Shown here: one piece after another, positions 3,113 to 33,630 of the stretch | Position numbering within the stretch: position 1 is the stretch's first letter | Layout of the letters: each line of letters opens with the position of its first letter | Made by a program: the position numbers and the translations under genes | Assembly (NCBI GenBank): GCA_009602725.1 | Contig: WELB01000036.1 | Span: 462,631-496,380 of the forward strand | Direction: 5' to 3' | DNA length: 33,750 nt | From: Spirogloea muscicola | Taxonomy: Eukaryota; Streptophyta; Zygnematophyceae; Spirogloeales; Spirogloeaceae | The notes under the pieces: generated by a model | Databases searched by the model: none | Told to the model about the DNA's origin: nothing | What the model saw: only the letters and a program-made list of their open reading frames with translations

Positions 3113-3236
3113 TCTTCTCTGACCTGCGGCTGCTTAGCAGGGGTTACTGAGTGTTTCGTAGCTGCTTAATTCCATGTGTGCTTTCTTCATTTGGGCTGGC
3201 CTTTTCCAGCCCCTATGCTCTGCGGGCGAGCCCTTC
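3113..3236 (+). mobile_element. 5'-truncated type-A retrotransposon copy
   Basis: It starts in the last codons of the ORF (DLRLLSRGY-stop). The 3' UTR follows, with stem GGGCTGG (3,193-3,199), a 6-nt loop and CCAGCCC (3,206-3,212), ending GCGGGCGAGCCCTTCT. The layout is the same as in the insertion with target duplications at 17,412-17,578. Confidence 0.75.
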
Positions 3237-3345
3237 TCTATTTCTTTAGCGCTTTCCCTGGCCCCTTCAAACTTTGTTACTCATTTTTTCTGGGCTGGCC
3301 TGTCCCAGCCACGGCCCTCGCCTGGAAGCGTCTCTCTTCTTACTC
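3237..3345 (+). mobile_element. B-like 3' tail directly behind a type-A tail
   Basis: It begins inside a 3' UTR (TTTAGCGCTTTCCCTGGCC) and carries a GGGCTGG (3,292-3,298) / CCAGCC (3,305-3,310) hairpin followed by ACGGCCCTCGCCTGGAAGCG. It follows the type-A tail end without a gap and in the same orientation. Confidence 0.65.
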
Positions 3346-3777
3346 CAACACGCTAACTTGGGGAACGGCTAACATGGTGGCGGAGCATCGCCACGGAAGC
3401 CAGTGCCCCTGACTAACGGATTCGAAGCGTACACATCAGGCAAGCAAGGGCTGTGAATGAGCCAAAAGCCAAAAAAAAGCCAAAGAAAGGACATAAAAGT
3501 CAAGGCGTGGGGTTGGCTAGCGGGCCTTCGCTCTCGATACCCCTACCCCCGGCCGCCGTCAGTGTCGGCGACTGACGGGTTGCCCTTGCCTCTGGCGTGC
3601 CTTCGCCTGCCTGCCTCTGGCCCTCCGCGCGCTCCGCGGCGCAGCTCGTCGGGGCCGCCACACCGCCCAAAACGACGCCTTGAGCCGCTCCTGCAGCACG
3701 AATCACTGCCGTGCTAGACGGCGCTGAAGCCTTCCCATGTAGAACACCTGCCAGGCTCGGCTGCAGGGCCGGCTGCG
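3346..3777 (+). other. Probable promoter and 5' leader of the ATG14-like gene
   Basis: From about 3,500 to 3,720 the sequence is GC-rich and has no conserved coding motif. It lies directly upstream of the ATG at 3,778. No clear TATA box was seen. The role is inferred from position only. Confidence 0.3.
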
Positions 3778-6700
3778 ATGGGAGCCATTGCCTGTGCCGC
3801 CTGCGAGCGCAGCAACCAGGAGTTTGTCTGCCCCTCGTGCATCAGAGGGAAGTAGGTTCTACGAGCACACCACGACATATCGTCGAATTTGTCATGTTGG
3901 CTTACATTACCAAGTGCCAGCCTGTTGTCTACCTCTGAACTGCATCGCATACATACTAAGATTTGTCACCTTACGAATCTGGACTTTCATTCATGGCGCC
4001 TGATGTTACCGTTATCACGCTGCTTATTGTCATTATCCTGAAGCATGGCAATCAGCCAAGTGTTCGCAGTGTCAAGGAGAGGCAGCGAATGCTGAGCCAG
4101 CGCATCCAGGAGCGAGATCGACTGAGGGACTCTACACAGGCGCGCTTAGGAGAAGAGGTGTAGACACACATCCTCGACGTGCAGTAGTCGATTACATAAT
4201 GGACAGATATCTCTTTGCCAACATAAGGCTTTGCAAAGTGTTCAATGTGGAATTCCAGGTGTGAGCATTCAGAGTATAGACACCACTCCAGCTTATCCTG
4301 CGAGCAGGTTCAGTTCGCCTTGTGGGCCACTGAGTAGATGTACTCGCCTCTGCGTCCTCTTTTTGCCTTCGGTAACAGGATGCCTTTCTAATGCACTGGA
4401 GATGGAGGGACGAAGCTACTGAACGGAGGGCACACCTGCGAATTAGGATCAAGGAAGCTCAAAGAGCCCTCATTAGAGGTCAGTATCGCGGACAGCCTCC
4501 CAGTGAGAATCTTATTCAGAAGGCTTGCTCCGTCCTCGCCAGGCACTTCTGCGCAGCTGGATACGCATAACAGACATCCAGCTAGTCATAGGACAAGTAA
4601 GGATTGAAGAGGATTGTGTCAGAGACCTTCCGCAGCAGCTAGTCCAAGGGTATCTGATGACCAAGGGTTTCCCTACTGTCCTACTGCTTGCTTTGCTTTG
4701 CAGACCCCTGAATCGTGTTTCCTTGGCATGTCAACAGTTGTGGAGAAGCTCGACGGCTTAGTAAGAAGCGTGCATGTGCGGGCAACGAAAGTGGCAGCTG
4801 CCAAGGACAAGGTGAGCATCCTGCATGTATTGATGCCCCTCAAAAGCAGAGCAAAGAAGAATAATGGGCAGTTTTAGGCAATCTATGATTTGTTCTCACC
4901 ATTGATCTCCCTCTGCTGGCCTGAACATTACACTGCCCAATCTGACGCATAATATCTCCAGTATAGTGCAGTATAGTCCAAGTTCTACTGCATCGCGGTC
5001 CATGTCCACAGTATGAATTAGAACTTGAGCAACCAATTAGTGTTGACGAAGAATATGAGCTGCTCTCAGAAGGTTTCTGTAGGTCCAGGTAGCTCACATT
5101 GCCCAGAAACTGCTGATTACCTTCGAGGACTATAAATTATGTGCATGCGATTGTGTATGCTTATTCAAAGATCTCATCCTGCTATGTGCAAATATCAGCT
5201 GACTTCCACAAAGGATGAGCTTCTTGTGCATCACTTTCCCGACCTTCTTCAAGCTCAGCTACTTAGCAGCGTAATGGGATTGCAATTAGCTACAACTCTT
5301 TGCATATCCTCTCTCAGCTTCTTGAGTATCTTCTCCATTGAAGCTGTGATGATGTTCTTGGTTGTACATGCAAGTTTTCCATCACCAGGCTGATACTTTC
5401 ATCTCTAAGGTTGCCTAAGGGTTGCCTGATCACATTGTCCCTTCTGACATGTTGCAGAGTAATATCTTGTCGGAGCTCCATCGTCAGAGGCAATTTCTTG
5501 TGCGCCAGCTCCGTGTCATTCTTCCACTGTAATCGGTATCCAGCATTGTCCTTCTCAGATTTATTCCATTCAGCACGCACTGTATGAGGTGTCCTCCTTC
5601 ATAAGGCGTAATGATGTGCTGAATTTGTTGAGCTTGTCATGACTCAAAGTCAGGATAATCCAGTAAGTTAGATCCGGGATTTATTTGGGGTTCAGGTTGC
5701 AGTCTGTGATTTCTGAACAGTAGCTGTCCACAAGCTTGCAAGTTGCAGAGGAAGTGACTTGCCTAAATAGCTACTATGCATCTGTAAGAAAAGTAAAAGC
5801 TTGTGCATCATACCACATCACACGAGGAAGCACACAAGCCTTACGTGACAATCAGATAGTACTGCAGAAGGCAGCCGACAGGTGACGCATCTTAGACTGC
5901 CTCATCTCTTGTGACAGGCTGTTGTGGAATCGCCAGATGTATGGGATGGCTCAGAGCGAGTTACCCAAGTCATACGCGTATGTGGTTTACGCCTTCCCAA
6001 GGACGACAACCCTCTTCTTCTACCACCAGCAGAGCTTGCTGTAGCTCTTGGGTACTTTTCAGCCCCTACCTACATGCAGCTGCCATGACTGTCAGACTTG
6101 TCAATACTGGGGGCTCCATGTACGGAGGTTCATGTACAGAGCTTGAGATTGACGACCCTGACTGCTTGTAAGCAGGTATCTACTTCATTTTCTTGACGTT
6201 TTGGCAACATATTTATCAAGCCCGCTTTTGCACTGTGCAAGCTTTGCTGTAAGCCACAACCCATTCTCTTATTGGTGCAGGGCATGCATTGAAACACGGG
6301 GGTAACAGTTCACATCAATGCCTTGTGGGGCTCACCAAGCTACTGAGATGGACATGCACCTCACGCTAGTCTTGGGTCAGGCGCAGGTCTTACTCACCTT
6401 GCTTGCTGCAGTCCCTGCTTTAGGACAATCTGATCTGGTTGACATGTTGTCCATACCAGGCTTCTTCATCCAAGATATGGCAGCGGGCTTCCTACCTCGA
6501 TAGTCAGCCGGCTGCTTCTAAGTCAGTCGTTCACATGACAACCTCCCAGCGTGCCTGTCTCTGGAACAGTCCAAACACACATACTTTTGCTGTGACAGCA
6601 TGAAGAGTGCAACTTTCTGCAACTTTTAAGACTTGCAGGTGCGGCAATGCTCAGATTTGAACATCGTATGCCTGCAAAGCCTTAGTCGCTGCTTGCTAAC

Positions 6701-9009: not shown

Positions 9010-12000
9010 GATCGTGTATTAGAAAGAAATGTAGGCCAAATGGCCAGGTACAAAGGCAAGCACATCTAAAAATCTACATAACCTACAGCAGATTGACCCG
9101 CTCAATAACCACGGGTCAAAACATAAAGGTCACTACTCGATGCATGAATACTAGATGCCAGGAACGGAGCCCTTCTGCCACCTACTAGAGCTCGCCCAGC
9201 TTTCTGGTGCAAGGCACTAGCCTGAGCACGCTGCAAACAGGCCGAAACTCGACGTCGCAAGAGCGACAGATATGCAGCTGGCAAGCCCATCTCAGCCGAA
9301 ACACATCTGCGCGTCGAGTGTAGCCTAGATTGGCAATGTGTTGAAGCAGAGTGTGGAAGCGAGGACCCAGACAGCCAAAGATGTCGATTGCAGCTGGCAG
9401 GAGTTGATCGCATTGGGGGTAATCGGAGTAATGCCGCAGTTTTCTTTGCTCTGCTCCGCCCACTGCGTGCCCAGCAATGTGTGTTGATGCTGGGCCTTTA
9501 CATGCCTCCGTAACAACAACGTCGACCAGGGCCCGTGGTCCTCCACCAGGTTGCACGCCCACAGTGTCAAGTGTGCGGCGATGATGACGTCCCTGGGCGT
9601 CCGTGGTGATAGGCATGATATTGTTGACTTCCACGACCGCACGGTAGCCGGCGTCGCGCATCAAGCCCGCCAGGGCATCGCGAAGGAGGTTGTGAATGCC
9701 CACCACTTCTGGTCCAGTGGGGCATCTCAGCATGTGAGTGGCGAGCACAGCACCCTCTGCACGGAAGCCGCACTCGCACTGGCGCACCCCAATCTGGCAA
9801 TTAGGTGGGAGGCCGAGGAAGAGTTGAAGCGATGTCCGAAAGGCCTCGGAGCTGATGCTGAAGGCGTTGGCGACGGGGGGAGAGGTGATCCAGTCAGTGG
9901 CACCAGGTGTGGCCAGAGAAGTGAGTCTTGCCACGGATTGTTCTGAATCTCTGGCAGCCTCCTCAACCTTCTGCGGCGTTCGTCTTCCACTGCCGTAACC
10001 AGTCTGGATTGTGCCCCTCTATCAGAAGCTTGGGCGAGGGTGGAGAATGGCGTGAGTAGGGGTTGGAGAGAGGGGAAAGAGCTGATGGCTGAGTCGCGGA
10101 TGCTCCTCAGATCCGCTTGGAAGGGGAAGGAGCCTTCCTCCACATTGCGTACAGGGTCGTGGAGGCAAGGGAAGCGCATGGGGAGCAGGGAGGCGATCTG
10201 GTGCCAGCAGCCCAGGAAGGCTGCTTGCGCCGTCTGCTCCAACGACCGGCAGCCAAGGCCGCCCATGCGAGTAGGGAGGGAGGCCTGGAGGGAAGCTGAA
10301 GCTGAGGGGAAAGATGAAGAATGTAGTAGGGCTGCCAGGGACTGCTGAAGGGAGTCATCATATTCCTTGTAGAGCTCCGCCACCATGCCCAATGGGGCAA
10401 CTGTCCGTTGCAGATAGCAAGCCCGTTGGCCGATGCAGCGGGTGAGGATGGCCAACGCCAGCTGCGTGTCCCCAAGGAGGGGAAGGGAAGGGAGGGGGGC
10501 GAGGTGTTTTTGAAGGCGTTCCCGCAAGTCCACCGCCACGTGAGCTGGTGTACCGAAGGGGACCTTGAGGATGGCCAGCCCATTGGCAGGGGTCTGACAG
10601 CCGTGGGGGAGCTGAAGGTTGGCAGGGAGACCGCGTGGGGACCAGGCCACGCTCTTGGACGGGCAAACCCGCAGGCCCATCAGGTCCAATTCGCGAACGA
10701 GCAAGGGGTAAGCCGCCATGACTTCAGCTGGAGGTCCAATGATGTGTGTGTCATCCGCGTAGGAAGGGAAGAGGAGGTATGGGTGTTGGCTCTGGGTGCG
10801 CCGAATAGCCCGGCAATGTGCCAATGCAAACAGGATTGGGCTAAGGGGATCCCCCTGGCGTGTGCCAGAAGATGACCACAGCGTCTTCCACGACTCTCCT
10901 GCTTGCCACAGCAGCCGCCCTGGGCGTCCATAGGCCATGAGGAAAAAGGGTATAAGGGAAGGGAAGTGGTCGCGCAGCTCCTCCATAATGACGCTGCGCT
11001 CCACTGTATTAAAGGCGTTAGTGATATCCAGCCCAAGGACCATCATTGAAGGGTCCACATCGAGAGCGGCACGGATGCCGTGGATGAGGGCCTCCGCCCC
11101 GCAGGACATGCCAGCACCAAATTGGTGGGGTGATAGATGGCTGGTCAGCTGGGGTTTCAGCTCGCTGCACACGGCCTTTGATACCAGCCGCATGACAACC
11201 TCCGTCATCGCAATGGGTCTCACTCCGCCTGTTGGCTTTGCAAGGGCTAGCAGGTGGCTGGAGTTTAAGGCATCAGCAATGCGTGGTGGAATGGCAGCCC
11301 TGGCGATGTGCCGGCAGGTGGACAGGAACAGGGAGAAGCTCCTCTCATCCCCATCAAGAAATAGGTCCTGTAGGTGCTCAAAGAGCCATCCAGAAGGGCC
11401 TCCAGACACCATTCGGGGGGCTTTGGTCAGGGCCACACGGAGCGCCTCTGCCGATAGGTCAAGAGGATTGGGGAGCTCGCCGGCCCAGGGCTCAAGGGGG
11501 TGTTGTGGAGGGGGGTAGAGCTGTCGCAAGATAGCCTCTGTGGCGTCGTTGGTAATAGCCAGGGGGTCAGGGCAAAGGGCCTGAGCGGCCCGGGAAAGTT
11601 CTCCTGCCCTGCCAAAGCGTCTTGCGCGCGCTAGAATGCCAGCTGTGGACTGTTGAGAGGGCTGGTTGACTGATCCATTGCGCGCGCGCCGCTGAGAGAG
11701 CGTGACCCGAGCAGCTGCTGCACGTTGCTGAGCCAACTCCTCCCATGCTCCACTTGAAAATTTTGCCAGTCTGTCTTGGAAAGTCTTGCGGCCTCCGACA
11801 CCAAAAGAGGGAAGATGGCCAAGAACAAGCTTGGGGAAAAGCATGTACAAGGCCCAGGCCGCCTCGTCCATAGAGTCCGCTTCGATGCGAGCAAGGTAAG
11901 GTGTAAGAACCTTGATGCACTCACGACGTGCCCATCTGGGAACGTGGCGTAGGTTTTGGATGCCGTCAGGGATGAGGAGGGAGGTGAGGTCCACTGTGGC

Positions 12001-12015
12001 AGCCCAATGCCAGCT
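9010..12015 (-). mobile_element. Type-D non-LTR retrotransposon, 5'-truncated, two frameshifts
   Basis: This is a reverse transcriptase that would copy element RNA at a nicked target, with an endonuclease that would make the nick. Reading leftward, the frame from about 12,015 includes LRHVPRWARRE, GGPSGWLFEHL, KPTGGVRPIAM, motif A LDITNAFN, motif B GTRQGDPL and the catalytic YADD (10,750-10,761). The frame then changes near 9,935 into one with QCECG...THMLRC (zinc knuckle), RRTLDTVG and ALVDVVVTE (restriction-like nuclease core). A second shift near 9,310 is needed to reach MGLPAAYLSLLRRR and the end DLYVLTRGY-stop (9,102). The 3' UTR ends at about 9,013 with GGCCATTTGGCC and TAATACACG. The N-terminal zinc fingers are absent. 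The two shifts make it a pseudogene unless they are sequencing errors. Confidence 0.85.
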
Positions 12016-12019
12016 CTCT

Positions 12020-12310
12020 GAAGAAGGTGAATTTCGTGTATTTGAAACAATCGAAGGCCAGTATGGCCAAGTACAAAGGTAAGCACATCTTATGACGTAG
12101 CAACTAGCATCTAAACTAGAAGAAGGGGGTAGAGGGCGGTGGCTGGGAGAGGCCAAACCAGAAAAAGAAATAACAAAGTCCGAAGGGGCCAGGGAAAGCG
12201 CTAAAGCACACACAGAAAAGCAAGTAGCTACCTAACACTCAGTGAACCCCTACTAAGCAGCCGCAGGTCGGAGAAACTAGTTACCTGGTAGCGTGTCCCC
12301 TGGCGAGGGC
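12020..12310 (-). mobile_element. Two chained tails: A/B-type copy, then a type-D tail
   Basis: Reading leftward, 12,310-12,100 contains DLRLLSRG, then TTTAGCGCTTTCCCTGG and a hairpin decayed on one side (TGGTTTGGCCTCTCCCAGCC). The segment 12,095-12,028 is a type-D tail (TTTGTACTTGGCCATACTGG to AATACACG). The truncated type-D reverse transcriptase starts about 15-20 nt further on, on the same strand. Confidence 0.65.
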
Positions 12311-15023: not shown

Positions 15024-15052
15024 NTTTTTTTTACACGACGCTCTTCCGATCT
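15024..15052 (+). other. Illumina sequencing adapter left in the assembly
   Basis: An N at 15,024 and eight T (15,025-15,032) precede ACACGACGCTCTTCCGATCT (15,033-15,052). That is the 3' end of the standard Illumina read-1 adapter, and the T before it also matches. The T run lies where the adapter has a pyrimidine stretch. This is not biological sequence. Sequences to the left and right of it may not be adjacent in the genome. Confidence 0.97.
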
Positions 15053-15285: not shown

Positions 15286-15331
15286 AGGTTCTCCGACTCC
15301 TCTGATCAGAAAGGTTCTCCGACTCCTCTGC
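15284..15331. repeat. Short tandem duplication
   Basis: AGGTTCTCCGACTCCTCTG occurs twice in a row, about 24 nt apart, joined by ATCAGAAAG. The word TCTGATCAGA recurs at about 15,393 and 15,467 next to the B tails. Confidence 0.8.
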
Positions 15332-15334
15332 AGA

Positions 15335-15475
15335 CCTTGTCCATTCCTTTGGGCTGGCCTTTCCCAGCCACCAGTCAATCTAGCCGCGCTTCCTTTCTGA
15401 TCAGACCTTGCCCATTCCTTTGGGCTGGCCTCTCCCAGCCACCAGTTAATCTGGCCGCGCTTGTTCTGATCAGAA
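15335..15475 (+). mobile_element. Two B-type tails in tandem
   Basis: Each unit reads ACCTTG(T/C)CCATTCCTTTG and then a GGGCTGG/CCAGCC hairpin (15,351-15,369 and 15,422-15,440). Each ends with ACCAGT(C/T)AATCT.GCCGCGCTT. This is the same tail that ends the intact element at 30,725. The two units are in the same orientation, about 71 nt apart. Confidence 0.75.
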
Positions 15476-15836
15476 AGTTGGTCAAGCCTTAGCTGGTTGC
15501 TCAAGAGCTTGTCGATTGCCGTCCGGTATTCGGGCATCAGTTAGCGACCTCTATGTGCTGACTCGTGGTTACTGAGCGGGTCAGCTTAGCAGCAGGTGAC
15601 GTACATTTTACCAGCGTGCTGGTCGTGCATTAGCCCAGGCTAGTGGCTTCCATGGTGGTGGTTTGGCTCCTCAGTATAGCTTGTCAGATATGCATGTGCT
15701 CACTCGAAGATATAAGCGTCCCCTTAGCCAGCTCATTACCCAGTTAAAACAGGACATTTGTAATGCTAGAATTGGCCTCCCTTTCACTTTCATGCGCACC
15801 GCGCGCCTTCTCTCTCGTCAATGTGCTTGCCTTTGT
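15476..15836 (+). mobile_element. Chained type-D, type-C and type-D fragments
   Basis: Bases 15,476-15,612 match the end of the type-D ORF, from an AGAAAGTTGGT word to LTRGY-equivalent codons (GTGCTGACTCGTGGTTACTGA). Bases 15,614-15,815 match the end of a different ORF (YSLSDMHVLTRRY), followed by a type-C tail with CATGCGCACCGCGCGCCTTC. Bases 15,816-15,836 are a type-D tail piece (TGCTTGCCTTTGTACTTGG). All are on the same strand. Confidence 0.7.
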
Positions 15837-16078
15837 ACTTGGCCACACAATGCCGTGCTATGGCCGCCACCTCTGGGTCTCGGCGGAGTGCCTCTTCCCT
15901 GCAGCGAGCTACTCAGACCTGATGTTGCTCCCTCACGAGTACTGAGCTTCGCTCTGCATCGTCTTGTGTTTTGAGTGTAGTCCTTTTCCGGCTCCTCTTT
16001 CTTTTGACTTGGACATTGTCCATTCTTTTTGGGCTGGCTTTGCCAGCCCCTCATCTCTATGGGCGAGCACTTCTTTTC
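15837..16078 (+). mobile_element. 5'-truncated type-A copy
   Basis: It starts with CGTGCTATGGCCGCCACCTC, which corresponds to the AGRALAAASG region of the ORF, and passes the end of the ORF near 15,944. The tail has GGGCTGG (16,031-16,037) / CCAGCCC (16,043-16,049) and ends ATGGGCGAGCACTTC. It follows the type-D tail piece directly. Confidence 0.7.
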
Positions 16079-16990: not shown

Positions 16991-17004
16991 AGGGAGAAAG
17001 CTCG

Positions 17005-17110
17005 GCCAGATTGACTGGTGGCTGGGAAAGGCCAGCCCAAAGAGAGAGAAGGCGCGCGGGGCGCATGAATTGAAAGGGAGGCCAATTCAAGCCAATACAT
17101 TGTTCAGGCA
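17005..17110 (-). mobile_element. Type-C tail chained to a type-B tail
   Basis: Reading leftward, 17,110-17,041 is a type-C tail (CTGAACAATGTATTGGCTTG to CGCGCGCCTTCTCTCTC). Bases 17,040-17,005 are a B hairpin (TTGGGCTGGCCTTTCCCAGC and ACCAGTCAATCTGGCC). The truncated copy at 16,990 follows on the same strand. Confidence 0.75.
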
Positions 17111-17315
17111 GAGTCGAGTGCAGACTAAACAATGCTACATATTACGGAGACCTAATCTAAGGTACCTAAGATGACATTAGTACCCACGGGTGAGCACAAA
17201 CAAATCTGACAAGCTAACTTGGGGAGCTGGAGCGCCGCCACGAAAGCCGGAGGCCTGACTTAGAGCGCGCCCTGCACGTTGATGAAGAGCCAATGCTTGC
17301 GAGCGCTGCAAAAGA

Positions 17316-18845
17316 ATGGACAGGGCGGGGAGAGGCCCAGCAGGTGGTGGACTGCCGTGCGGAAAAGTTCATCCGGCATCCTGAGTGCATCGTAGAGGGG
17401 GAGCACGAAGAAAGTGCTCGCCCATTGAGAATAGGGGCTGGAACAACCAGCCCGAAAAAGAATGAACAGAGTACGAGAAGCGGGCCAGGGGAAGCGCTAA
17501 GTAACAGAAACAAAGCTGCTACGAGACACTCAGTAACCCCTGCTAAGCAGCCGCAGATCAGAGATGCTGGGCTGCTGGGCACGAAGAGCCAGGCTGCCGC
17601 GCCAGGGGAGGAGGCCGACCACAGCCGAGCATAGCCACGCACGTCTGTCGGAGGGAGGAGCCGCAGCGTGGCCGTGAAGGCCGCCTTGTCGACCTCCGCC
17701 AAGTATTGCGCCTGCGCCCGCGAGTCGATGGAGTGGGCCAGCTGCGCAAAAGGGACCAAGCTCTCCGCGAGGGCTGGGTGCTCCACGAGTAATTCGTGTT
17801 GAACGGAGCGGAGCGCACCTAAAAGGCAACGAGCCGGTCGCCACCTCCGCCACAGGCTGACGCAGCATGGGCCGCCCGTCCTGGACGAAGCGCTGCGCCA
17901 CCGACGTAGCGACCTGAGCCCAGCTGCCGAGGTACGCTGGCCTGCAGATGCGAGCAAGCGAGCGGCAGCCAAGGCCGCCGTGGCTGAGGGGACGAGCAGC
18001 CTGGTGCACAGCAGCTGTCGAGTCGAGGAAGCCCGAGTATCAGTTGAGGGCCGCCACGCTTCCCAGGACGCCGGTGTCAAAGATGGCGCAGACATCCAGC
18101 ACCGCGGGGCAGCGAGGTGTAGCCCGCGCAAGTTAGTGGGGCCGCTGGACGATGCTTCTGGTGAGCATGGCCAGGGCCAGCTGCACATCCTGTAGCTCTG
18201 GGAGGCGGGCAGCCGGTTGAAGGTGCTCCTGGAGCCGGGCGGCCAGCTGCACGTCCACGAAGGATGGCGTACCGTAGGGAACCCCCAGGGATGGTGAGGC
18301 CGCTCGGAGGAGTCTGGCATCCGGTGGTGAGAGGCGCGGGGGCAGGCAGGCTGCGAGTCGACCACACGACGCACTTCTCGGCCCGAATGGTCAAGCCGAG
18401 GGCGGCCAGCTGCTGCTGGAGGGTGGCGGTGGCTGCCAGCACATCCCCTGCCGACCAGGGTGGTGTCGTTGGCGTACATCGGCAGGAGACGCTGGGATGC
18501 GCCGCCGCAGTGGCCTTGAGAGCGCAGTTGTGAGCAAACGCAAAAAAGATCCCTGCCAGCGGATCCCCTTGGTGAGTGCCTGTCCTCGACTGCAGCGTCT
18601 CCACCTCACCAATCCAGTCCGCCACAGAAGGTCGCTGGGCTGGCCGTAGCCAAGGCGGAAGACGGGAAGGAAGGATAGGAAGGCGCAGCCCTCAGCTCCT
18701 CGGCGATGGCGTCGCGCTCTATGCTGTTGAAAGCAGTTTGCATAATGACCGCCAGGACGATCCAGTCAGGGTGGAGATCCAGGGCCGCGCGGACGCCGTG
18801 GACGACAGCCTCCCCGCCGCTTTGTAGCCCAGCGCCGTATTAATG
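17316..18845 (-). pseudogene. Decayed reverse-transcriptase copy with nested insertion
   Basis: Frames on the minus strand give pieces of a reverse transcriptase related to the intact one: EAVVHGVRAALDLHP-like sequence near 18,800 and a TGTHQGDPLAGIFFAFAH motif B near 18,560. The catalytic box is changed to YAND (about 18,470), followed by LAEVDKAAFTATLRLLPP and DVRGYARLWSASSPGAAAW (17,600-17,700). The frame then continues at 17,400 with YDALRMPDELFRTAVHHLLG, interrupted exactly by the insertion at 17,412-17,578. There are many frame changes, and the C-terminus after about 17,316 is lost. The YADD-to-YAND change alone should abolish activity. Confidence 0.8.
17412..17578 (-). mobile_element. 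167-bp type-A insertion with 9-bp target duplication
   Basis: GCACGAAGA flanks the insert at 17,403-17,411 and 17,579-17,587. Removing the insert and one copy rejoins the reverse-transcriptase frame of the host copy (AAWLFV to LPLYDALRM). On the minus strand the insert starts in codons for SDLRLLSRGY-stop, carries the 3' UTR and the GGGCTGG/CCAGCCC hairpin, and ends GGGCGAGCACTTTC. This fixes the true 3' end of the type-A tail and shows that it moves as a non-LTR element. Confidence 0.88.
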
Positions 18846-19011: not shown

Positions 19012-19390
19012 TTGGAGACTCGTATCCTGCTTTTCGCGCCATCCTGCCTTGTTTGGCTCACGCGGTCCACACGCGCGCCGGCCGCGCTATGGCTGCTGCG
19101 TCAGGGTCTTGGCAGAGTGCCGCTTTTCCTGCTTCGAGTTTTTCTGATTCGTTGTTGCTCACTCGTGGATACTGAGCATCCATCTGCATCATTACGTGTC
19201 CTAGTGTGTAGTTATTTCAATTTCGGCACCGTTTTGTGGCCTTTGTGGCCTGCGGATTTTGTCCATTCTTCTCTGGGCTGGCTTTGCTAGCCCGTCTTCT
19301 TCTATGGGCGAGTCATTTCTTTCAGACCTTGAACATTCCTTTGGGCTGGCAAATCACTGCCACTGCGGTGATTTGGGAAATAGAGCTCCG
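19012..19390 (+). mobile_element. Type-A copy chained to a type-B tail
   Basis: The frame HTRAGRAMAAASGSWQSAAF continues to DSLLLTRGY-stop at 19,175. A tail follows with GGGCTGGCTTTGCTAGCCC (19,275-19,293) and ATGGGCGAGTCATTTCTT. Directly behind it, at about 19,322, AGACCTTGAACATTCCTTTG and a decayed B hairpin begin. Both are on the same strand. Confidence 0.75.
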
Positions 19391-22830: not shown

Positions 22831-22990
22831 AGGAGGCGCGCGCGGTGCGCATGACATTAAAAAAACGTGTATTAAGAGATGGGGAGGCCATGTGTGGCCA
22901 AGTACAACGGCAAGCAAAATGTCATGCGCGGTGCGCATGACATAAAAGGGTGGCCAATTTGTGACCAATACACTGTTGAGGCAAAAGCTA
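22830..22990 (-). mobile_element. Chained type-C, type-D and type-C tails
   Basis: Reading leftward there is a type-C tail (CACTGTATTGGTCACAAATT to ATGCGCACCGCGCATGACAT). Next comes a type-D tail (TTGTACTTGGCCACACATGG to TTAATACACG), and then part of another type-C tail (TGCGCACCGCGCGCG). All three are on one strand. The type-D tail ends with the same ATACACG as at 9,013, 25,588 and 33,238. Confidence 0.65.
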
Positions 22991-24014: not shown

Positions 24015-24725
24015 GCTGTGATACGGCTTGCCACCCACATGCTGCAGTGGCCCACAGGCCCTAAGGTGGTGGGAATCCATAGTCTCGTACGGGACGCCCT
24101 GGCGGACATGATGCGCGACGCCAGCTAACGCGCCATTGTGGAAGCGAGCAATATAATGCCTATCACCACGGATTCTTAGGGACGCCATCACTGTCGCACC
24201 TTGGACATTGTGGGTGTACAACCTGGCGGAGGCCCACGAGCCTTGGTTGATGTGGTGGTGACGGAAGCATACAAGAGTTCCGCTTCGGCGCACATTGCTG
24301 GCCACGCAGTGGGAGGTGCTGAGCAGAGAAAGCTCCGACACTACTCTGACTACCCTCGCAGCGATCACCTCCTTCTGGCGGCATTTGACATTTTCGGCTG
24401 CATGAGTCCTCGCTTCAATACCTTACTGGAGAATATTGCAAGTTTGGGATATGCTCGACGTGAGGATTTGCTTCCAGCTCAGATGGGCATGCCGGCAGCC
24501 TACTTGTCATTCTTGCGACTCGAGTGTCAGCTTGTCTGCTGCGAGCTCAAGCTCATGCGTTGCATCAGAAAGCTGGTCGATCCTTAGCTCAAGAGCTTGT
24601 CAATTGCCGTCCGGTATTCGGGCATCAGTTAGCAACCTCTATGTGCTGACTCGTGGTCACTGAGCGGATCAGCTTAGCAGCAGGTGACATACATTTGTCA
24701 ATGTGCTTGCCTTTGTACTTGGCCA
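24015..24725 (+). pseudogene. 5'-truncated type-D copy (endonuclease region)
   Basis: The frame reads LATHMLQWPTGPKVVGIH, NIMPITTD, RTLDIVGVQPGGGPRALVDV, AEQRKLRHYSDYP and LGYARREDLLPAQMGMPAAY. It runs closely parallel to the nuclease region of the copy at 9,010-12,015. In-frame stops lie at about 24,127 and 24,177, and a third ends the frame at 24,585. The end DSRGH replaces TRGY near 24,660. The tail keeps only TGTGCTTGCCTTTGTACTTG. The frame at the 9,310 frameshift of the other copy is uninterrupted here, which helps to place that shift. Confidence 0.8.
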
Positions 24726-25194
24726 CACGTGCCCTCCATCTCTTAAAAAACACTCATTGACCCTCCCTGTGGCCATATACTACGCACTAGAGTGACCATG
24801 TTTCATGTCCCGTCCACCTTGAGCTCCATAACCGTTGGTCACTACCACCTTACTCTGCCTTGCGCTTACACATTTTATAGGCTTTAATTAGCCTCCCTCT
24901 CAACTCATGCACACTGCACGCCTCCTCTCTCGCTCTTCCCATCAGATCGTCGTACCTGCCCTTTCTTGTTTGTACAGGCTGGCCTTTCACAGCCCTCGCT
25001 CCCTTTGTAAGAGCCCCTTCCTTACATTTCACAGCCCTTGCCCCCTCTAAGGACCTAACTTTCTTTCTGACTTGCGGCTGCTTACTAGAGGTTACCTAGA
25101 GACCATCCGTAATGGTACTTGCTTATTTGTGTATTTCAGCACGTTCTGGCCCCTTCGGACCTCGTCTGATTTCACGGGCTGGCTTTTTGAAGTC
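24726..25194. other. No gene recognised; tail remnants
   Basis: GCCCTCCATCTCTTAA at 24,731 also occurs at 16,079, next to another tail. A decayed type-C tail (GCCTCCCTCTCAACTCATGC) lies near 24,890, and hairpin remnants (GGCTGGCCTTTCACAGCCC) near 24,978. An ORF-end remnant (GACTTGCGGCTGCTTACTAG) lies at about 25,066. Confidence 0.45.
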
Positions 25195-25917: not shown

Positions 25918-26160
25918 TGAAGGGAAAATGGACAAGGTCCGAAGGGGCCGGAAAGCGCTCTATCTCATTGGGCTGGCCTTCCACAGTACCGCCCAAGTCT
26001 GCACAAACAAAAACTCACTGCATTGGAAAGTATGTAAGCTCTTGCAAAGGCGGCGAGGGCCGTGAAAATAAAAAAAACTCCTCCCAAAAGGGGGCCAATG
26101 GCTGTGAAAAGCCAGCCCAAGATAGAATGGACAAAGTCGGGGTATACAGGGGGGGTGGTA
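25918..26160. mobile_element. Mixed B-type tail fragments
   Basis: Minus-oriented GGGGCCGGAAAGCGCT lies at about 25,943. A plus-oriented hairpin GGGCTGGCCTTCCACAG lies at 25,971, and a minus-oriented hairpin (GGCTGTGAAAAGCCAGCCC) at 26,101-26,119, followed by AGAATGGACAAAGTC. Just beyond this the intact element begins. Confidence 0.55.
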
Positions 26161-26274
26161 ACTAAGCATACGGCCACATGCTGCGGCCACACGGCGGGCA
26201 CTTTCTTCTGGGGGTGCCAGCCTGAGCACCTCTCACCCCGGGGGCCGCCGGCGTCGCTGCCGGCGGCGCCCGCC

Positions 26275-29200
26275 ATGGGGCCCGCGGCGCGTCGGCCCCC
26301 TCCCGACCTGCCCCTCGCACCCGTCGCCGCCGCCGCTGTTCCCGCCGTCGCCCTGCCGCCCGCCGCTGCTGCCCTCGCCTCCGCCGCCCCGCTCTCCGCC
26401 GCCCTACCCGCGCCTCCCCGACGCCGCCGGCGGAGTCCGAGTCCGGAGTCGCTCCAGGAGACGCTCATGGCCAAGCACCTGTGTGAGGCGGTCACGACGC
26501 CTCGGCCCAGACTCAGACAGCCCGCCCTCGCCGCCGCCGCCCCACCCGCATGCGCCCGGCGCCGCCGACGGAGCCCGAGTCCGGAGCTGCTCCAGGAGAC
26601 GCTCATGGCCAAGCACCTGTGTGAGTCGGTCGCGACGCCTCGACCCCGGCTTAGGCAGCCCCGCGCCGCGCCTCCAGCGCCGTCGCCGCTTCCTGCCATC
26701 GTTGCCACGCAGTTGCTGCACTTCGTTCGTCGGTCTCCTCCGCCGCCGCCGCCGCCGCCTTTCCCTATCCAGTCGCCTTCTCCTCCTCCTCCTCCCTCTC
26801 CTCCTTCGTCTCCTCCCCCTCCGCCTTCCTCTCCTTCCCCCCCTCCTCCCCCTCCTCCACCTCCTCCTTCTTCTCCTCCCCCTCCTCCTCCTCCTCCTCC
26901 CCCTCCTGCTCCCGCCCTCCCTTCCTCTCCTCCTCCTACTCCTCCTCCTCCTTCCCCTCCTCCGTCTTCTCCTCCTCCTCCTCCTCCGCCACCTCCTCCC
27001 CCCCACTCGCCTCCATCAACGCCCCCCGCGCCATCCTCATCTCCCTCGCCGCCGTCACCCCCGCCACTGCGCCCTCCCCCGTCGACCGAGATGCTGCCGT
27101 GCCCGCTCTGCCAGGTCAAATACAAAGGAAACAAAGGCGTGAAGATCCACCTGCGCACCTGCGGCCCGCGCCACGCCAGTCTCGCCAGCTCGCCTCAGGA
27201 GCAGGCCAGGGAGGAGCACCAATCGCCTCCCGCTCAGCCGCCGTCCCCACCGCCGTCGCCGCCGCCGCCGCCGCCGTCGACGCCGCCCGATGTGGCCGCC
27301 GGAGCGTGCAACCCAACCGCCCCGGTCCTGGCAGCCTCACCCCAGGAGCAGGCCAGGGTGGAGCAAACATCGCCTCCAGCTCTGCCGCCGTCCCCACCGC
27401 CGTCGCCGCCGCCGCCGTCGCCCTCGGCGCCGCCCTCCATTCCGCCCAGCTCGCCTCCGCCGCAGCTCTGCCGCCACTGCCGGAGCCTCTGCACCCCCCG
27501 CAACCTGGCCCAACACGAGCTCGCCTGCGGCCGTCGCAACAATCGTGCGGAGCAGGCGCGTCGCGCAGCACCAGCGGGCGGCCGCGGCCGCAACCGAGGC
27601 AGCCACGGCCGGCGCGTCCCACCGGCGGCGGTCCCACCAGGTCCCCACCACTGGCAATGGGCGGCGGACCTTGACCTGGCTGAGGTCCACCGCCAGGAGG
27701 CCCTCCCACTTCTACGCCATGTGCCGCGGTGGGCGCGCCCACACCTACGCCGTGCCCTCCGACCGGTTCTGCAGCGCATCGTGGTCGACCACAGAGACGC
27801 GGCCGCCTGGACGGTCTTCATTCTCTTCCCCCGACTGCTGCTCGGGCGAGCACCCTCCCAGGGCCACGGCCAAGGCCGCCAACTGCTCCTGGACCGCATC
27901 TACCTCTTTGAGTGCGGGAGCTGGGAGGAGCTCCTGGCGCAGCACGACGCTGCAGTGGCTGCGGCCACCGCAGGCCGCCGCTCTTCGCAGACAGCGCCTT
28001 CGCCCGATCGGGCGGCCAGTGTCCGCCGCGCTCTCCGATACGGCCATGCCGGGGAGCTCTCGAGAGCCGTCCAAGCGCTCGATGATTCGGTGTTGGCGCC
28101 GGCGACTGAGGCCACGCGCGACGCCCTCTCGTCCCTCCACCCCCCGGCGCGCTCTCCCCTGCCTGCGTGGTTGGCTTCCTATGCCCCGCAGGAGGAGGTG
28201 GCCCTCGATGCGGCAGCCTTTCGCAAGGCCCTGCAGAGCAGCCGGCGCGCAGCTGCTGGCGGCCCCTCGCGCATGGTCATGGAGCATTTGCGGGAGCTCT
28301 TCCTTGAGGGGGACGAGGCGGACTTCCGGGCGCTGCACCAGGTGTGCCAACACATGGCCCGAGGTCACGTCCCAGTCAGCATCCGGGACGTGCTCTGTGC
28401 CAGCACACTGATGGCCGTCAGCAAGGTCAATGGCGGCGTCCGCCCAATTGCCATCGGCGAGGTGCTGTACCGGCTGGTGGGTCGGGCTCTATGGCAACAG
28501 CATGCAGGTGCGGCCCAGACACACCTCGCGCCGCATCAATATGGGGCAGGCCTGCGGAGCGGCGGCGAAGCTGTGGTGCATGGGGTGCGGGCTTCCCTTG
28601 ACCTGCACCATGAGTGGGTTGTGCTGGCGGTGGACGTTCGCAATGCGTTCAACTGCGTCGACCGCGCTGCTGTCGCCGAGGAGCTCCGAGAGGCCTTCCC
28701 CACGCTGCTGCCGTTCTTCCGGATGGGCTACGGCCAGCCCAGCGATCTCCTATGGCGGCATGGCACCAACGGGGTGGAGGTCCTCCGGTCTTCCACAGGC
28801 ACGCGCCAAGGGGACCCCCTAGCGGGGTTCTTCTACGCGCTGGCCCACGACCGCGCCCTGAAGGCAACGGCAGCTGCCCACCCGGGCGTCCTCCTGCCAA
28901 CCTATGCCGACGACACGACCTTGGTCGGACCACCAGCTGAGGTCTTGGCTGCCTTCGCCACCTTGGAGGAGCACCTGAAGGAGCTTGGCCTGGACATCTG
29001 CGCTTCGAAGTGTAGCGCTTGGTCCCCCCAAGGACGGACAGCCCTCCCCCGCCTACCCCCCGGCTGCCAGACGCCAGACGGGGGCATCACACTCCTCGGG
29101 GTTCCCTTGGGCTCACCTGCCTTCGTGGAGGAGCAGCTGCGCGGCAAGCTGCAGGAGCACCTCAAGCCGGCGGCCCGCCTCCCTGAGCTGCATGACATGC

Positions 29201-30603
29201 AGCTCGGGCTCGCCATGCTGACGCGCTGCATTGCCCAACGTCCCCTGTACCTGGCGCGCACACTCCCCCCCTCCCCGGCGACGCAGGCTGTGTACGAGAC
29301 CTTTGATGCAGGTATCCTGGCCAGCACAGCGGCCCTGGTCCAACACCCGGCCTTCCTGGAGACGCAGGCCGCAGTGCAACAGGCCTCCCTGCCTGTGAGC
29401 CGCGGGGGTCTCGGCTGCCGGCCGTTGGCTCGTGCCTGCCAGGCAGCCTACCTGGGGAGCTGGTCACAGGTCGCGGCTTCGGTGGCCCAGCGGTTCCTCT
29501 GGCATGGGGGTCGCCTCCTGGAGCCCGCAGTGGCGGACGTCGAGACCGGCGCGTGGCCTTTCCAAGTGGAGCTGCGCACAGCCCGGGATGCGCTGCTGGC
29601 GGGCCACCCCGCCCTGGTGCCGCGGGCCGTCCCCTTTGCGCACCTCTCGCGCACGGCCGACCTCCGGGCCCAAGCTCGCTACATGGCGGAGGTCGATGCG
29701 GCCGCATTCACCAAGGCGCTGGCACTTCTGCCTCCGGCCGACGTCCGGGGCCGCGCGCGGCTACACTCGGCGTCATCACCTGGTGCGGCAGCTTGGCTGT
29801 CTGCGCTCCCTATCTATGACGCGCTGCGCATGCAGGACGACGTCTTCCGTACAGCGGTCCACCGCCTCCTCGGCCTCCACCCACCCTGCCTCAATGGGGT
29901 ACACCAATGTGAGTGCGGCGAGCGCAGCCCAGACGCGGCGAATTTGGCTGCCCACATGCTCAGGTGCGCACGAGGAGGGGAGCGGACCGCCACCCACGAC
30001 CTGTTGCGCAACGCCATGTACGGCATTCTCGTGGAGGCCGGCTACACCGTGGCGCTGGAACACCCCGGCATCATGCCCCTGACTGTCGGAGCGGATGGCC
30101 GCCCTCACACCCGCCGGGCCGATCTCGTCGCCAGTGCGCTGGGCGGGGGTCCCCGGCTCATTGCCGATGTGGTCACTACGGACTGCGTTGTATCCAGCAG
30201 CGACAAGCGTTCATCCGAGGAGGCGGGCTATGCAGTCCGCCTGGCGGCGGGTGCCAAGGAACTCAAGTACGCGGATCACCCCGAAGGCGACGAGTTTGTC
30301 CCACTCGCCGTCGACGTGCACGGAGCCTTTGGGACCAAGTGGCTAGACCTTCTTCACCGCCTTGCTCGTCGTGCGGTGGCCCGTCGCCAGGGGCAGAACG
30401 GCGAGCAGCCTGGCTTCCACGTCGCCGGGTCCCTCGCCCAGGTGTTCAGGATGCGCCTCGCCATTTCCCTCCAGCGGTCTCTTGCGTTTGCCGTCCACCT
30501 ACGTGCCGGCCGCGCCCTGGCGGCTGCCTCCGGGTTTCGTCAGGGCGACGTCTTCCCGCCCTCTAGCTACTCGGACCTGCACTTGCTGACTCGAGGTTAC
30601 TGA
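26275..30603 (+). CDS. Intact non-LTR retrotransposon ORF: zinc fingers, RT, restriction-like endonuclease
   Basis: This single ORF would bind nucleic acid, nick a target and reverse-transcribe element RNA. The frame is open from 26,062, but 26,062-26,160 is antisense tail sequence, so I prefer the ATG at 26,275 (about 1,442 residues). Numbered from 26,062, it has an Arg/Ser repeat (120-200), proline-rich linkers (about 223-343 and 390-465), and zinc fingers C347-C350-H363-C367 and C470-C473-H485-C489. The RT has motif A D858 (VDVRNAFN), motif B TRQGDPLAG (914) and YADD (948-951). A zinc knuckle is C1283-C1285-H1298-C1302. The nuclease has R-R-A-D1354 and ADVVT with D1369, then a Lys-rich helix (AKELKY). 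It ends LTRGY. This layout is that of R2/NeSL/Utopia-type elements; I cannot name the clade. No stop or shift was seen, so it may be recently active. Confidence 0.88.
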   Translation: MGPAARRPPPDLPLAPVAAAAVPAVALPPAAAALASAAPLSAALPAPPRRRRRSPSPESLQETLMAKHLCEAVTTPRPRLRQPALAAAAPPACARRRRRSPSPELLQETLMAKHLCESVATPRPRLRQPRAAPPAPSPLPAIVATQLLHFVRRSPPPPPPPPFPIQSPSPPPPPSPPSSPPPPPSSPSPPPPPPPPPPSSPPPPPPPPPPPAPALPSSPPPTPPPPSPPPSSPPPPPPPPPPPHSPPSTPPAPSSSPSPPSPPPLRPPPSTEMLPCPLCQVKYKGNKGVKIHLRTCGPRHASLASSPQEQAREEHQSPPAQPPSPPPSPPPPPPSTPPDVAAGACNPTAPVLAASPQEQARVEQTSPPALPPSPPPSPPPPSPSAPPSIPPSSPPPQLCRHCRSLCTPRNLAQHELACGRRNNRAEQARRAAPAGGRGRNRGSHGRRVPPAAVPPGPHHWQWAADLDLAEVHRQEALPLLRHVPRWARPHLRRALRPVLQRIVVDHRDAAAWTVFILFPRLLLGRAPSQGHGQGRQLLLDRIYLFECGSWEELLAQHDAAVAAATAGRRSSQTAPSPDRAASVRRALRYGHAGELSRAVQALDDSVLAPATEATRDALSSLHPPARSPLPAWLASYAPQEEVALDAAAFRKALQSSRRAAAGGPSRMVMEHLRELFLEGDEADFRALHQVCQHMARGHVPVSIRDVLCASTLMAVSKVNGGVRPIAIGEVLYRLVGRALWQQHAGAAQTHLAPHQYGAGLRSGGEAVVHGVRASLDLHHEWVVLAVDVRNAFNCVDRAAVAEELREAFPTLLPFFRMGYGQPSDLLWRHGTNGVEVLRSSTGTRQGDPLAGFFYALAHDRALKATAAAHPGVLLPTYADDTTLVGPPAEVLAAFATLEEHLKELGLDICASKCSAWSPQGRTALPRLPPGCQTPDGGITLLGVPLGSPAFVEEQLRGKLQEHLKPAARLPELHDMQLGLAMLTRCIAQRPLYLARTLPPSPATQAVYETFDAGILASTAALVQHPAFLETQAAVQQASLPVSRGGLGCRPLARACQAAYLGSWSQVAASVAQRFLWHGGRLLEPAVADVETGAWPFQVELRTARDALLAGHPALVPRAVPFAHLSRTADLRAQARYMAEVDAAAFTKALALLPPADVRGRARLHSASSPGAAAWLSALPIYDALRMQDDVFRTAVHRLLGLHPPCLNGVHQCECGERSPDAANLAAHMLRCARGGERTATHDLLRNAMYGILVEAGYTVALEHPGIMPLTVGADGRPHTRRADLVASALGGGPRLIADVVTTDCVVSSSDKRSSEEAGYAVRLAAGAKELKYADHPEGDEFVPLAVDVHGAFGTKWLDLLHRLARRAVARRQGQNGEQPGFHVAGSLAQVFRMRLAISLQRSLAFAVHLRAGRALAAASGFRQGDVFPPSSYSDLHLLTRGY
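26419..26660 (+). repeat. 138-bp tandem duplication inside the RT ORF
   Basis: Unit 1 (from 26,419) and unit 2 (from 26,557) are in frame, 46 codons apart. Both encode RRRRRSPSPE-x-LQETLMAK followed by HLCE-x-V-x-TPRPRLRQP. Most differences are single substitutions. It is a basic, RS-like segment that might bind nucleic acid or direct nuclear import. Confidence 0.88.
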
Positions 30604-30725
30604 GAGCCTCCTTGTCGTCTTAGCACTTAGTCTTCTGCTTTTTGTGCCATTCGGCTCCTTTTGACATTGTCCATTCCTTTTGGGCTGGCTCCTCCCAGCC
30701 ACCAGTCAATTCGGCCGCGCTTTTC
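30604..30725 (+). other. 3' UTR of the intact element with B-type hairpin
   Basis: After the stop at 30,601-30,603 come TTAGCACTTAGTCTTC, ACATTGTCCATTCC and the hairpin GGGCTGG (30,682-30,688) / CCAGCC (30,695-30,700). CACCAGTCAATTCGGCCGCG then leads into CTTTTCC. The same tail occurs without an ORF at 15,335-15,475 and 32,940-33,000. It is probably the RNA feature recognised by the element's own reverse transcriptase. Confidence 0.65.
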
Positions 30726-33010: not shown

Positions 33011-33236
33011 GAATGGACCAGGTCCATTGGGGCCAGAAAGTGCTAAGGCTCACAGCTACACACAGAGGCTACTACGATTGGGTGTTCCATTCCTGGGTAG
33101 CAGCCGCACTTTGAAGCAGCTTCTAGCTGGAACATTGTCACGACGGCGATAGGCAGACGTACGAGGCGAGATACGAAGCTGTGCAAGGCCAAGGGGAGGG
33201 AGGTTGGAAAAGAGAGAGAGAGGGGAAAGGTCGGAC
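33011..33236. other. No gene; short tail remnant
   Basis: GGAATGGACCAGGTCCATTG and GGGGCCAGAAAGTGCTAAGG (33,009-33,050) are a minus-oriented A/B 3' UTR fragment. Nothing else was recognised. Confidence 0.45.
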
Positions 33237-33545
33237 CGTGTATTAGAAAGAAATGTAGGCCAAATGGCCAGGTACAAAGGCAAGCACATCGAAAGATCTA
33301 CATAACCTACAGCAGATTGACCCGCTCAATAACCACGGGTCAAAACATAAAGGTCACTAATCGATGCATGAATACTAGATGCCCGGAACGGAGCCCTTCT
33401 GCCACCTACTAGAGCTCGCCCAGCTTTCTGGTGCAAGGCACTAGCCTGAGCACGCTGCAAACAGGCCGAAACTCGTCGTCGCAAGAGCGACAGATATGCA
33501 GCTGGCAAGCCCATCTCAGCCGGAAACTCATCTGCACGTCGAGTG
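33237..33545 (-). mobile_element. 5'-truncated type-D copy
   Basis: It matches the ends at 9,013 and 25,588 nearly base for base. The frame MGLPAAYLSLLRRRVSACLQ ends at DLYVLTRGY-stop (33,326), and the tail has GGCCATTTGGCC and TAATACACG. On the minus strand it starts right after a type-C tail ending CTTCTCTCTC. Confidence 0.82.
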
Positions 33546-33549
33546 TAGC

Positions 33550-33630
33550 CTAAAGAGAGAGAGAAGGCGCGCGGTGCGCATGAAATTAAAGCGAGGCCAA
33601 TTCAAGCCATTACATTGTTCAGGCAGAAAA
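33550..33630 (-). mobile_element. Type-C tail
   Basis: Reading leftward it runs from CTGAACAATGTAATGGCTTG through GAATTGGCCTC to TCATGCGCACCGCGCGCCTT and a pyrimidine run. The next element begins without a gap, on the same strand. Confidence 0.75.

What the first reader, a model, noticed from the sequence alone, without database searches (positions are those of the whole stretch)
3113..33630. Truncated retrotransposons chained tail-to-head on the same strand
At many junctions the 3' tail of one copy is followed at once by a 5'-truncated copy in the same orientation: about 3,236, 15,405, 15,475, 15,836 and 19,320 on plus; about 33,548, 17,040, 16,998, 12,097 and 12,020 on minus. Members often come from different tail groups. 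R2-type reverse transcriptases are known to jump between templates during target-primed synthesis, which would make exactly this order. Insertion of each new copy into an existing tail would also do so.
Basis: partly seen in the sequence, partly recalled or inferred. Interest (0 to 1): 0.75.

Follow-up and report, generated by a model that had tools for sequence, protein, structure and literature searches.

The report
Retrotransposons nesting in each other's tails
In this alga-like genome, truncated jumping genes look chained in one direction mainly because new copies keep landing inside the pyrimidine-rich tails of older copies, each landing leaving a tail that can be hit again; template-hopping is not needed for most of the chains tested.

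Summary
Same-strand, tail-to-head adjacency of different families is real in the window and genome-wide: neighbouring tails under 30 bp apart are 57 same-strand against 11 opposite, and 139 exact T2-T2 pairs lie within 66 bp in the genome. Most chains tested are not template jumps but serial, nested insertions into older tails. Signs: (a) short target duplications at internal junctions; (b) many "5'-truncated followers" are the distal half of an older tail whose proximal half lies upstream of the inserted copy. A prediction written before fetching held in 15 of 21 cases against 8 of 57 controls. (c) T2 tails resume at a few recurrent sites, 21 of 49 at CCAGCCC|CTATTCTC. The elements encode an RT and, probably, an R2-type restriction-like endonuclease. 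Template jumping remains possible for a minority: outer-end matches are also in excess. Closest precedents are Zepp (nested, L1 clade) and MoTeR (endonuclease-type, telomeric arrays). I call it a new variant of a known kind.

The parts
26038..30600 (+). Open frame of 1,521 codons: two N-terminal zinc-finger-like motifs (seen by eye), RT, C-terminal CCHC plus probable restriction-like endonuclease (T1 family element)
   Evidence: RVT_1 E 1.1e-14; PDB R2 protein E 0.0017; C-terminal motifs in alignment; poor model (pLDDT 50.7) best matches R2Tg 9dou E 5.2e-4 and R2 9nl2 E 3.5e-3
30604..30725 (+). T1 3' untranslated region and tail with hairpin GGGCTGG..CCAGCC
   Evidence: 28 of the 40 best-scored copies end at query position 134-136
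9012..12018 (-). 5'-truncated B-family element with RT frame
   Evidence: tail B
3177..3243 (+). T2 stub inserted in the 3' UTR of a T3 element (T3 halves about 3113-3176 and 3244-3333); CTTT repeated at both ends
   Evidence: uninterrupted T3 copies at minus 12290-12125 and 23835-23655
15331..15474 (+). Two T1 tails in a row; CTGATCAGA occurs three times (before, between, after), i.e. one extra copy per insertion
15609..15816 (+). M copy inserted in a B-like element (host pieces 15469-15608 and 15817-15848); no duplication seen
   Evidence: uninterrupted copy 24564-24728
15849..16078 (+). T2 copy inserted in the hairpin region of the same B-like element (host resumes about 16079-16105); no clear duplication
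   Evidence: uninterrupted copy about 24729-24760
16995..17318 (-). T1 copy inserted in an RT/endonuclease frame with 7-bp duplication CCCTGTC (17319-17325 and 16988-16994); the T1 tail is itself split by an M copy (about 17308-17044) just before its hairpin, TTTG repeated
   Evidence: read by eye; host frame resumes at about 16987
17411..17578 (-). T2 copy (extent approximate) inserted in the same frame, duplication TCTTCGTGC; a similar uninterrupted site was found once elsewhere
12034..12113 (-). B stub after a T3 tail (about 12310-12131), own 8-bp duplication CCTTCTTC on both sides
22866..22920 (-). B stub (extent approximate) inside an M tail; 18-bp duplication ATGTCATGCGCACCGCGC
33237..33552 (-). 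B copy following an M tail (about 33629-33556); only a low-complexity TCTCTCTCTC repeat as possible duplication
19260..19363 (+). T2 tail followed by a T1-like piece; origin unresolved

Best explanation
The window is a nest of non-LTR retrotransposons with an R2-like RT and a probable R2-type restriction-like endonuclease. Shown: copies are usually strongly 5'-truncated, and new copies often sit inside the 3' tail of an older copy of the same or another family, on the same strand, often with a short target duplication. Inferred: the enzyme nicks pyrimidine-rich sites (roughly C|YYTTT on the element's sense strand), copies RNA from its 3' end, and soon stops. Because the tails are pyrimidine-rich on the sense strand and many end in CTTTCTTC-like letters, a tail is a good target mainly in one orientation, and each insertion supplies a new one. 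Repeated rounds give same-strand chains in which the upstream member is often the younger one and the 'truncated follower' is the rest of the tail it interrupted.
For: (1) Target duplications are real: copies outside chains show a match of 7 or more between upstream and downstream flank in 66 of 269 against 4.3% for mismatched flanks. (2) In 34 chained pairs from the systematic loci plus window, the downstream member has its own match of 7 or more in 11 of 34 (control 8.5%), the upstream member in 6 of 34 (control 4.2%), the outer pair in 4 of 34 (control 6.0%). With ten pairs from the T2-T2 loci added and new boundaries: 13 of 44 (12.5%), 9 of 44 (6.0%), outer 8 of 44 (6.2%). (3) Removing a copy plus one duplication restores a site found uninterrupted in another locus for 40 of 218 copies with a candidate duplication of 6 or more (controls 9/135, 6/140, 8/129, 13/118); in 22 of the 40 the restored site is a tail on the same strand, in 2 a tail on the opposite strand, in 16 other repeat sequence. 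(4) Prediction noted, tested: 15 of 21 T1-T2 'chains' have a 3'-truncated T2 tail, the missing proximal half, upstream of T1, against 8 of 57 T1 copies not followed by T2 (Fisher p 2.8e-6). One script miss (L153) is also nested when read by eye, and one script hit (L160) is doubtful. (5) In 49 T1-T2 chains T2 resumes at or near CCAGCCC|CTATTCTC 21 times, in the hairpin loop 9, at CCC|CCTTCTCG or close by 7, just before the hairpin 4, elsewhere 8 (grouped with hand-made patterns). (6) Antisense T1 inside the last ~30 bp of T2 tails is found 8 times in the genome with a pattern of similar strictness. (7) Window junctions read one by one.
Against: Only about a third of chained pairs show an internal duplication. 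Outer-end matches are in excess too: 8 of 44 at 7 or more (control 6.2%) and 19 of 44 at 6 or more (control 17.4%), an excess about as large as that of the internal ones; of those 19, ten also have an internal match of 7 or more and nine do not. Five or six of the 21 test cases stay unresolved, and L145 and L011 look as much like jumps as like nests. The target matrix is partly circular: matches can run into the pyrimidine tail, chance matches are pyrimidine-rich as well (about 0.70 at each position), and a matrix built from them predicts an even stronger bias (8.8) than the real ones (5.0, or 2.7 with a stricter cut); it supports the direction at most. M and T2 at 15,609-16,078 show no duplication. 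The controls are not low (about 5-11%).
Confidence: 0.8

Rival explanations
1. Template jumping: during one insertion the RT copies a short stretch of one RNA, then jumps to the 3' end of another RNA, giving a same-strand chain with one duplication at the outer ends.
For: R2 RT jumps in vitro (PMC8857657, passages). Outer matches are enriched (8 of 44 at 7 or more, control 6.2%; 19 of 44 at 6 or more, control 17.4%), and nine of those 19 have no internal match of 7 or more. L011 (outer AGGGTTGC) and L145 (block inside a T2c element, no internal repeat) fit.
Against: Internal duplications and split tails at the rates given above; recurrent resume sites; three copies of CTGATCAGA around two T1 tails where a jump would leave two. 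L153, at first a jump candidate by its outer repeat, read as T1 nested in a 28-bp T2 stub. Some outer matches are simple pyrimidine runs or tail letters.
Confidence: 0.14
2. Tandem duplication or unequal exchange after insertion.
For: L024 holds three T1 units of about 164 bp in tandem with the same truncation point.
Against: 66 of 93 same-strand neighbours under 60 bp apart join different families. Among the pairs listed I saw equal repeated units only in L024.
Confidence: 0.04
3. Assembly artefact: repeats collapsed and wrongly joined.
For: Adapter-like letters beside an N at window 15,024 and runs of N in some loci (L024; L141) show assembly faults.
Against: Junctions occur at many places on many contigs, many carry duplications and restore intact sites.
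Confidence: 0.02

Closest known systems
Zepp and Zepp-like (ZeppL) LINEs of green algae
   Same: Nested insertion that targets existing copies and makes tandem arrays mostly of 3' ends, because of 5' truncation (stated in PMC8226300, passages, which credits Higashiyama 1997; nested clusters also in PMC3446292, passages).
   Different: Zepp elements are placed among L1 LINEs and form about one cluster per chromosome, thought centromeric; here the C-terminus is RLE-like, several families invade each other's tails, and copies are scattered (112 scored matches to the C-terminus on many contigs, a lower bound).
MoTeR1/MoTeR2 of Magnaporthe oryzae
   Same: RT with a putative restriction-enzyme-like endonuclease; truncated copies; tandem copies always head to tail (PMC7367193, passages).
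   Different: MoTeRs sit in telomere repeats and adjacent copies are separated by telomere repeats; I saw no such spacer at the junctions that I read, but did not search for telomere repeats.
R2 retrotransposons
   Same: RT match (9nl2, E 0.0017), C-terminal motif pattern and best fold match to R2 proteins; template jumping known for the RT.
   Different: R2 inserts at a specific site in 28S rRNA genes (abstract starts); these copies are dispersed, 5'-truncated and lie in varied flanks.

Membership tests
RLE-type (R2-group) non-LTR retrotransposons | Reverse transcriptase domain | tested here: met
   RVT_1 5.2e-17 and 1.1e-14, above cut-off
RLE-type (R2-group) non-LTR retrotransposons | C-terminal CCHC motif and restriction-like endonuclease after the RT | tested here: met
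   RxxD, D and K..Y are invariant in all 8 aligned rows; CxC..HxxxC is kept in the six rows that reach it (meaning of the motifs recalled). Fold search of a poor model (mean pLDDT 50.7) ranks R2Tg 5.2e-4 and R2 9nl2 3.5e-3 first. Against: a profile search of PDB sequences found nothing at E 0.05, so this is moderate evidence.
RLE-type (R2-group) non-LTR retrotransposons | N-terminal zinc fingers | tested here: inconclusive
   Two C2H2-like motifs seen by eye in P0002; Pfam listed only RVT_1 for this protein at E 0.01
R2 proper | Insertion at the R2 site of 28S rDNA | tested here: not met
   The copies read sit in other repeats and varied flanks; rDNA itself was not searched
Zepp-like nested LINE clusters | Nested insertion into existing copies giving same-strand arrays of 3' ends | tested here: met
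Zepp-like nested LINE clusters | L1-type protein (APE endonuclease) | tested here: not met
   RLE-like C-terminus; no endonuclease/exonuclease/phosphatase family listed
Template-jump chains | One duplication at outer ends, none inside | tested here: inconclusive
   Internal duplications and split tails speak against it for most cases tested; an outer excess and cases such as L011 and L145 leave room for a minority

The most novel reading that the evidence does not exclude
In this genome the 3' tail serves twice: as RNA it is the part copied first by the RT, and as DNA it is a favoured, orientation-fixed landing site for related families. Each insertion supplies a new landing site, so the families form a self-feeding, cross-family nest scattered over the chromosomes rather than confined to centromeres or telomeres, with some template jumping added on top.
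Probability: 0.45. Interest if true: 0.62.

Novelty: new variant of a known kind. Interest (0 to 1): 0.46.

Why it matters
It explains an apparently exotic chain arrangement by a simple rule (a tail that is both template end and target), gives a large natural set of insertion sites for an RLE-type element with a loose target, and warns that 'truncated retrotransposon followed by truncated retrotransposon' calls may often be one older copy cut in two. It also supplies a natural test set for how often non-LTR RTs jump templates in vivo.

Tried and rejected
Template jumping as the main cause: not supported (see above), kept as a minority cause. A target matrix as a quantitative prediction of the orientation ratio: the first run gave 4.98 against 57:11 observed, but the chance-match control gave 8.8 and a stricter cut 2.7, so only the direction is kept. 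A first empty-site test had a high control (24-34 of 204-210 against 64 of 254) and was replaced by a stricter one. A first automatic split-tail test counted T1's own hairpin (18 of 21 against 51 of 57) and was replaced. One search's permissive 5' boundaries were replaced by stricter ones. Rfam search of the window: no match. Profile search of PDB with the C-terminal alignment: no match.

The sample is not random over the genome: T1 and B loci come from the first 100 listed places (zero mismatches; T1 on contigs C1-C8, B on C1-C12), so young copies are over-represented. The 60 T2-T2 loci come in listing order from the 100 listed of 139 pairs. The 21 T1-T2 cases are the first 21, in listing order, of the 30 that resume in or after the hairpin, leaving out two inside loci fetched before (one further, L141, overlaps L081). 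Rows dropped: two T1 places and two T2-T2 places overlapping loci already fetched, 8 copies without a boundary and 14 with open 5' ends of 355; from then on, 475 of 530 copies with a 3' end (645 tails) had a usable boundary.
Full report
What the window is. It is crowded with pieces of non-LTR retrotransposons. One open frame of 1,521 codons at 26,038-30,600 (+) and one of 834 at 12,231-9,730 (-) carry a reverse transcriptase domain. The larger has its best solved-structure match to an R2 retrotransposon protein (E 0.0017). In an alignment of its C-terminal part with seven others, RxxD, D and K..Y are invariant in all eight rows, and CxC..HxxxC is kept in the six rows that reach it; I recognise this from memory as the R2-type restriction-like endonuclease. 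A poor model (mean pLDDT 50.7) still ranks two R2 proteins first in a fold search, the top one being the only hit with E below 0.001. A profile search of PDB sequences found nothing. 112 matches to this C-terminus were scored, on many contigs (a lower bound, 110 of 22,478 candidates scored).

Tails. Copies end in one of several tails. I name them T1, T2 (with variants), T3, T4, B and M. T1-T4 share a hairpin GGGCTGG..CCAGCC; T1, T2 and T4 copies often end in letters such as CTTTCTTC. Genome counts of 35-letter patterns with up to 3 mismatches are T1 4,079, T2 6,188 and B 1,909, with 0 in the reversed control. Copies in the sampled loci are mostly short: medians 54 to 149 bp by family, leaving out copies that run to the end of the stretch; split tails shorten some of these values.

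The observation. Scanning the window and 80 sampled loci for tails (428 tails), neighbours less than 30 bp apart are 57 same strand, 10 tail-to-tail and 1 head-to-head. At 30-100 bp the count is 60 against 29. Of 93 same-strand neighbours under 60 bp apart, 66 join different families. In the genome, exact T2 ends lie 6-66 bp apart on the same strand 139 times and tail-to-tail 64 times; the same-strand arrangement needs a very short second piece, the other does not, so the bias is probably stronger than the ratio. T1 followed within 60 bp by T2: 49 same strand, 34 tail-to-tail. The chains are therefore real and general.

Target duplications. For copies outside chains, the longest match between the upstream and downstream flank is 7 or more in 66 of 269, against 4.3% for mismatched flanks. 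So these elements make duplications, and some are still visible; the 52 of 8 or more listed run from 8 to 16 bp (the cut sets the lower end). In 34 chained pairs the downstream member shows its own match of 7 or more in 11, the upstream member in 6, the outer ends in 4; controls are 8.5%, 4.2% and 6.0%. With ten more pairs and new boundaries: 13, 9 and 8 of 44; controls 12.5%, 6.0% and 6.2%; copies outside chains 85 of 391, control 6.3%. Internal duplications are thus about as common as in single copies, as serial insertion predicts. Against a pure serial reading, outer matches are in excess as well (at 6 or more 19 of 44, control 17.4%). Of these 19 pairs ten also have an internal match of 7 or more and nine do not; several of the outer matches are pyrimidine runs or tail letters. 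An older copy's duplication split by a later insert would also give an outer match, so the excess is open to both readings.

Split tails. Reading reconstructed sites showed that a number of inserts sit inside a tail: for example L029 and L045, T1 inside T2 at the same place, CCAGCCC[CTATCCTC] and CCAGCCC[CTATTCTCA]; L033, T1 inside T4; L062, B inside M; window 22,866, B inside M with 18 bp repeated. A systematic test joined the two flanks with one duplication removed and looked for that site in other loci: 40 of 218 copies passed, controls 9/135, 6/140, 8/129 and 13/118; 22 restored a same-strand tail, 2 an opposite-strand tail, 16 other repeat sequence. The controls may be inflated because sites recur.

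A prediction and its test. If T1-T2 chains are T1 copies nested in T2 tails, the missing proximal half of T2 must lie upstream of T1. I noted this, fetched 20 stretches holding 21 of the 30 cases that resume in or after the hairpin, and tested. It held in 15 of 21, against 8 of 57 T1 copies not followed by T2 (Fisher p 2.8e-6). By eye, L153 is a further case (T1 inside a 28-bp T2 stub that has its own duplication of 10 bp, or 16 with one mismatch), while the script's hit in L160 is doubtful. L141, L145, L149, L151 and L159(-) are unresolved; in L145 the block T1 plus T2 stub interrupts a T2c element with no internal repeat, which a jump would also give. L143 and L156 show T1 inserts of only about 20-25 bp.

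Recurrent sites. In the 49 T1-T2 chains, grouped with hand-made patterns on retyped strings, T2 resumes 21 times at or near CCAGCCC|CTATTCTC, 9 times in the hairpin loop, 7 times at CCC|CCTTCTCG or close by, 4 times just before the hairpin and 8 times elsewhere. These four points have a C before and pyrimidines after. Duplication starts outside tails look alike: C in 48% of 44 sites just before, and pyrimidine at the first three positions 0.93, 0.80, 0.73 for matches of 8 or more (44 sites) and 0.90, 0.83, 0.70 for 9 or more (30 sites); chance matches give a flat 0.70, 0.70, 0.68, so part of this is bias. A weaker pyrimidine excess is seen without using duplications: 0.582 in the 10 bp before 475 five-prime boundaries against 0.537 further out. 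Sense strands of tails are 64.8% pyrimidine against 49.0% overall. A matrix from these sites predicts same-strand insertion in tails by 5.0 to 1 (5-95% 3.0-7.7) or, with the stricter cut, 2.7 (1.4-4.8); but a matrix from chance matches gives 8.8, so I use it only for direction. Antisense T1 inside the last ~30 bp of T2 tails occurs 8 times in the genome.

3,236: a T2 stub interrupts a T3 3' UTR; two uninterrupted copies in the window. 15,405 and 15,475: two T1 tails with three copies of CTGATCAGA. 15,836: M and then T2 inserted in one B-like element that is uninterrupted at 24,564-24,760; no duplication seen. 17,040 and 16,998: a T1 copy inserted in an RT/endonuclease frame (CCCTGTC repeated) and itself split by M (TTTG repeated). 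12,097 and 12,020: the two ends of a B stub with CCTTCTTC repeated. 33,548: only a low-complexity repeat; weak. 19,320: unresolved. Eight of ten read as serial or nested insertion.

Mechanism. Shown: strand bias, duplications, split tails, recurrent sites. Inferred: an endonuclease that prefers pyrimidine tracts, target-primed synthesis with early arrest, and tails that supply new targets. The chain order then needs no jump. R2 RT can jump in vitro (PMC8857657, passages read), so a minority of jumps is plausible.

Known relatives. Zepp arises by nested insertion that targets existing copies and makes arrays of 3' ends (PMC8226300 and PMC3446292, passages); the original 1997 paper was not read. 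MoTeR elements have a putative restriction-enzyme-like endonuclease and form head-to-tail arrays in telomere repeats (PMC7367193, passages). My searches (listings, apart from the passages named) listed no paper that I recognised as describing cross-family nesting in tails for dispersed RLE-type elements, but the library is partial and I make no claim of priority.

Noticed in passing
window 15024-15052: An N followed by T's and ACACGACGCTCTTCCGATCT, which I recognise from memory as Illumina adapter sequence, left in the assembly.
   Followed up: no
L024 (G000:C1:1707277-1709311): Three T1 units of about 164 bp in tandem with the same truncation point, next to a run of N; looks like tandem duplication rather than separate insertions.
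   Followed up: partly
L143 and L156: T1 inserts of only about 20-25 bp inside T2 tails, with short repeats at the ends: extremely short retrotransposition products.
   Followed up: partly
window 32-99 and 169-236: Two closely similar T2 tails facing each other tail-to-tail about 70 bp apart.
   Followed up: no
window 26384-26669: A 138-bp unit repeated about twice inside the proline-rich N-terminal part of the T1-family frame.
   Followed up: no
G000 contigs C235, C267, C61, C101, C294, C445: Several strong RT matches lie within tens of kilobases of each other on a few contigs; several 1,237-codon frames score equally or nearly so, possibly another, younger family.
   Followed up: no
window 12904-14433 (-): Frame with DUF7796 (E 1.6e-89) followed by weak methyltransferase matches below cut-off: probably an ordinary gene between the nests.
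   Followed up: no
window 15281-15330: A 26-bp unit repeated 1.9 times just upstream of the first T1 tail, as if target DNA had been copied at the 5' junction.
   Followed up: no
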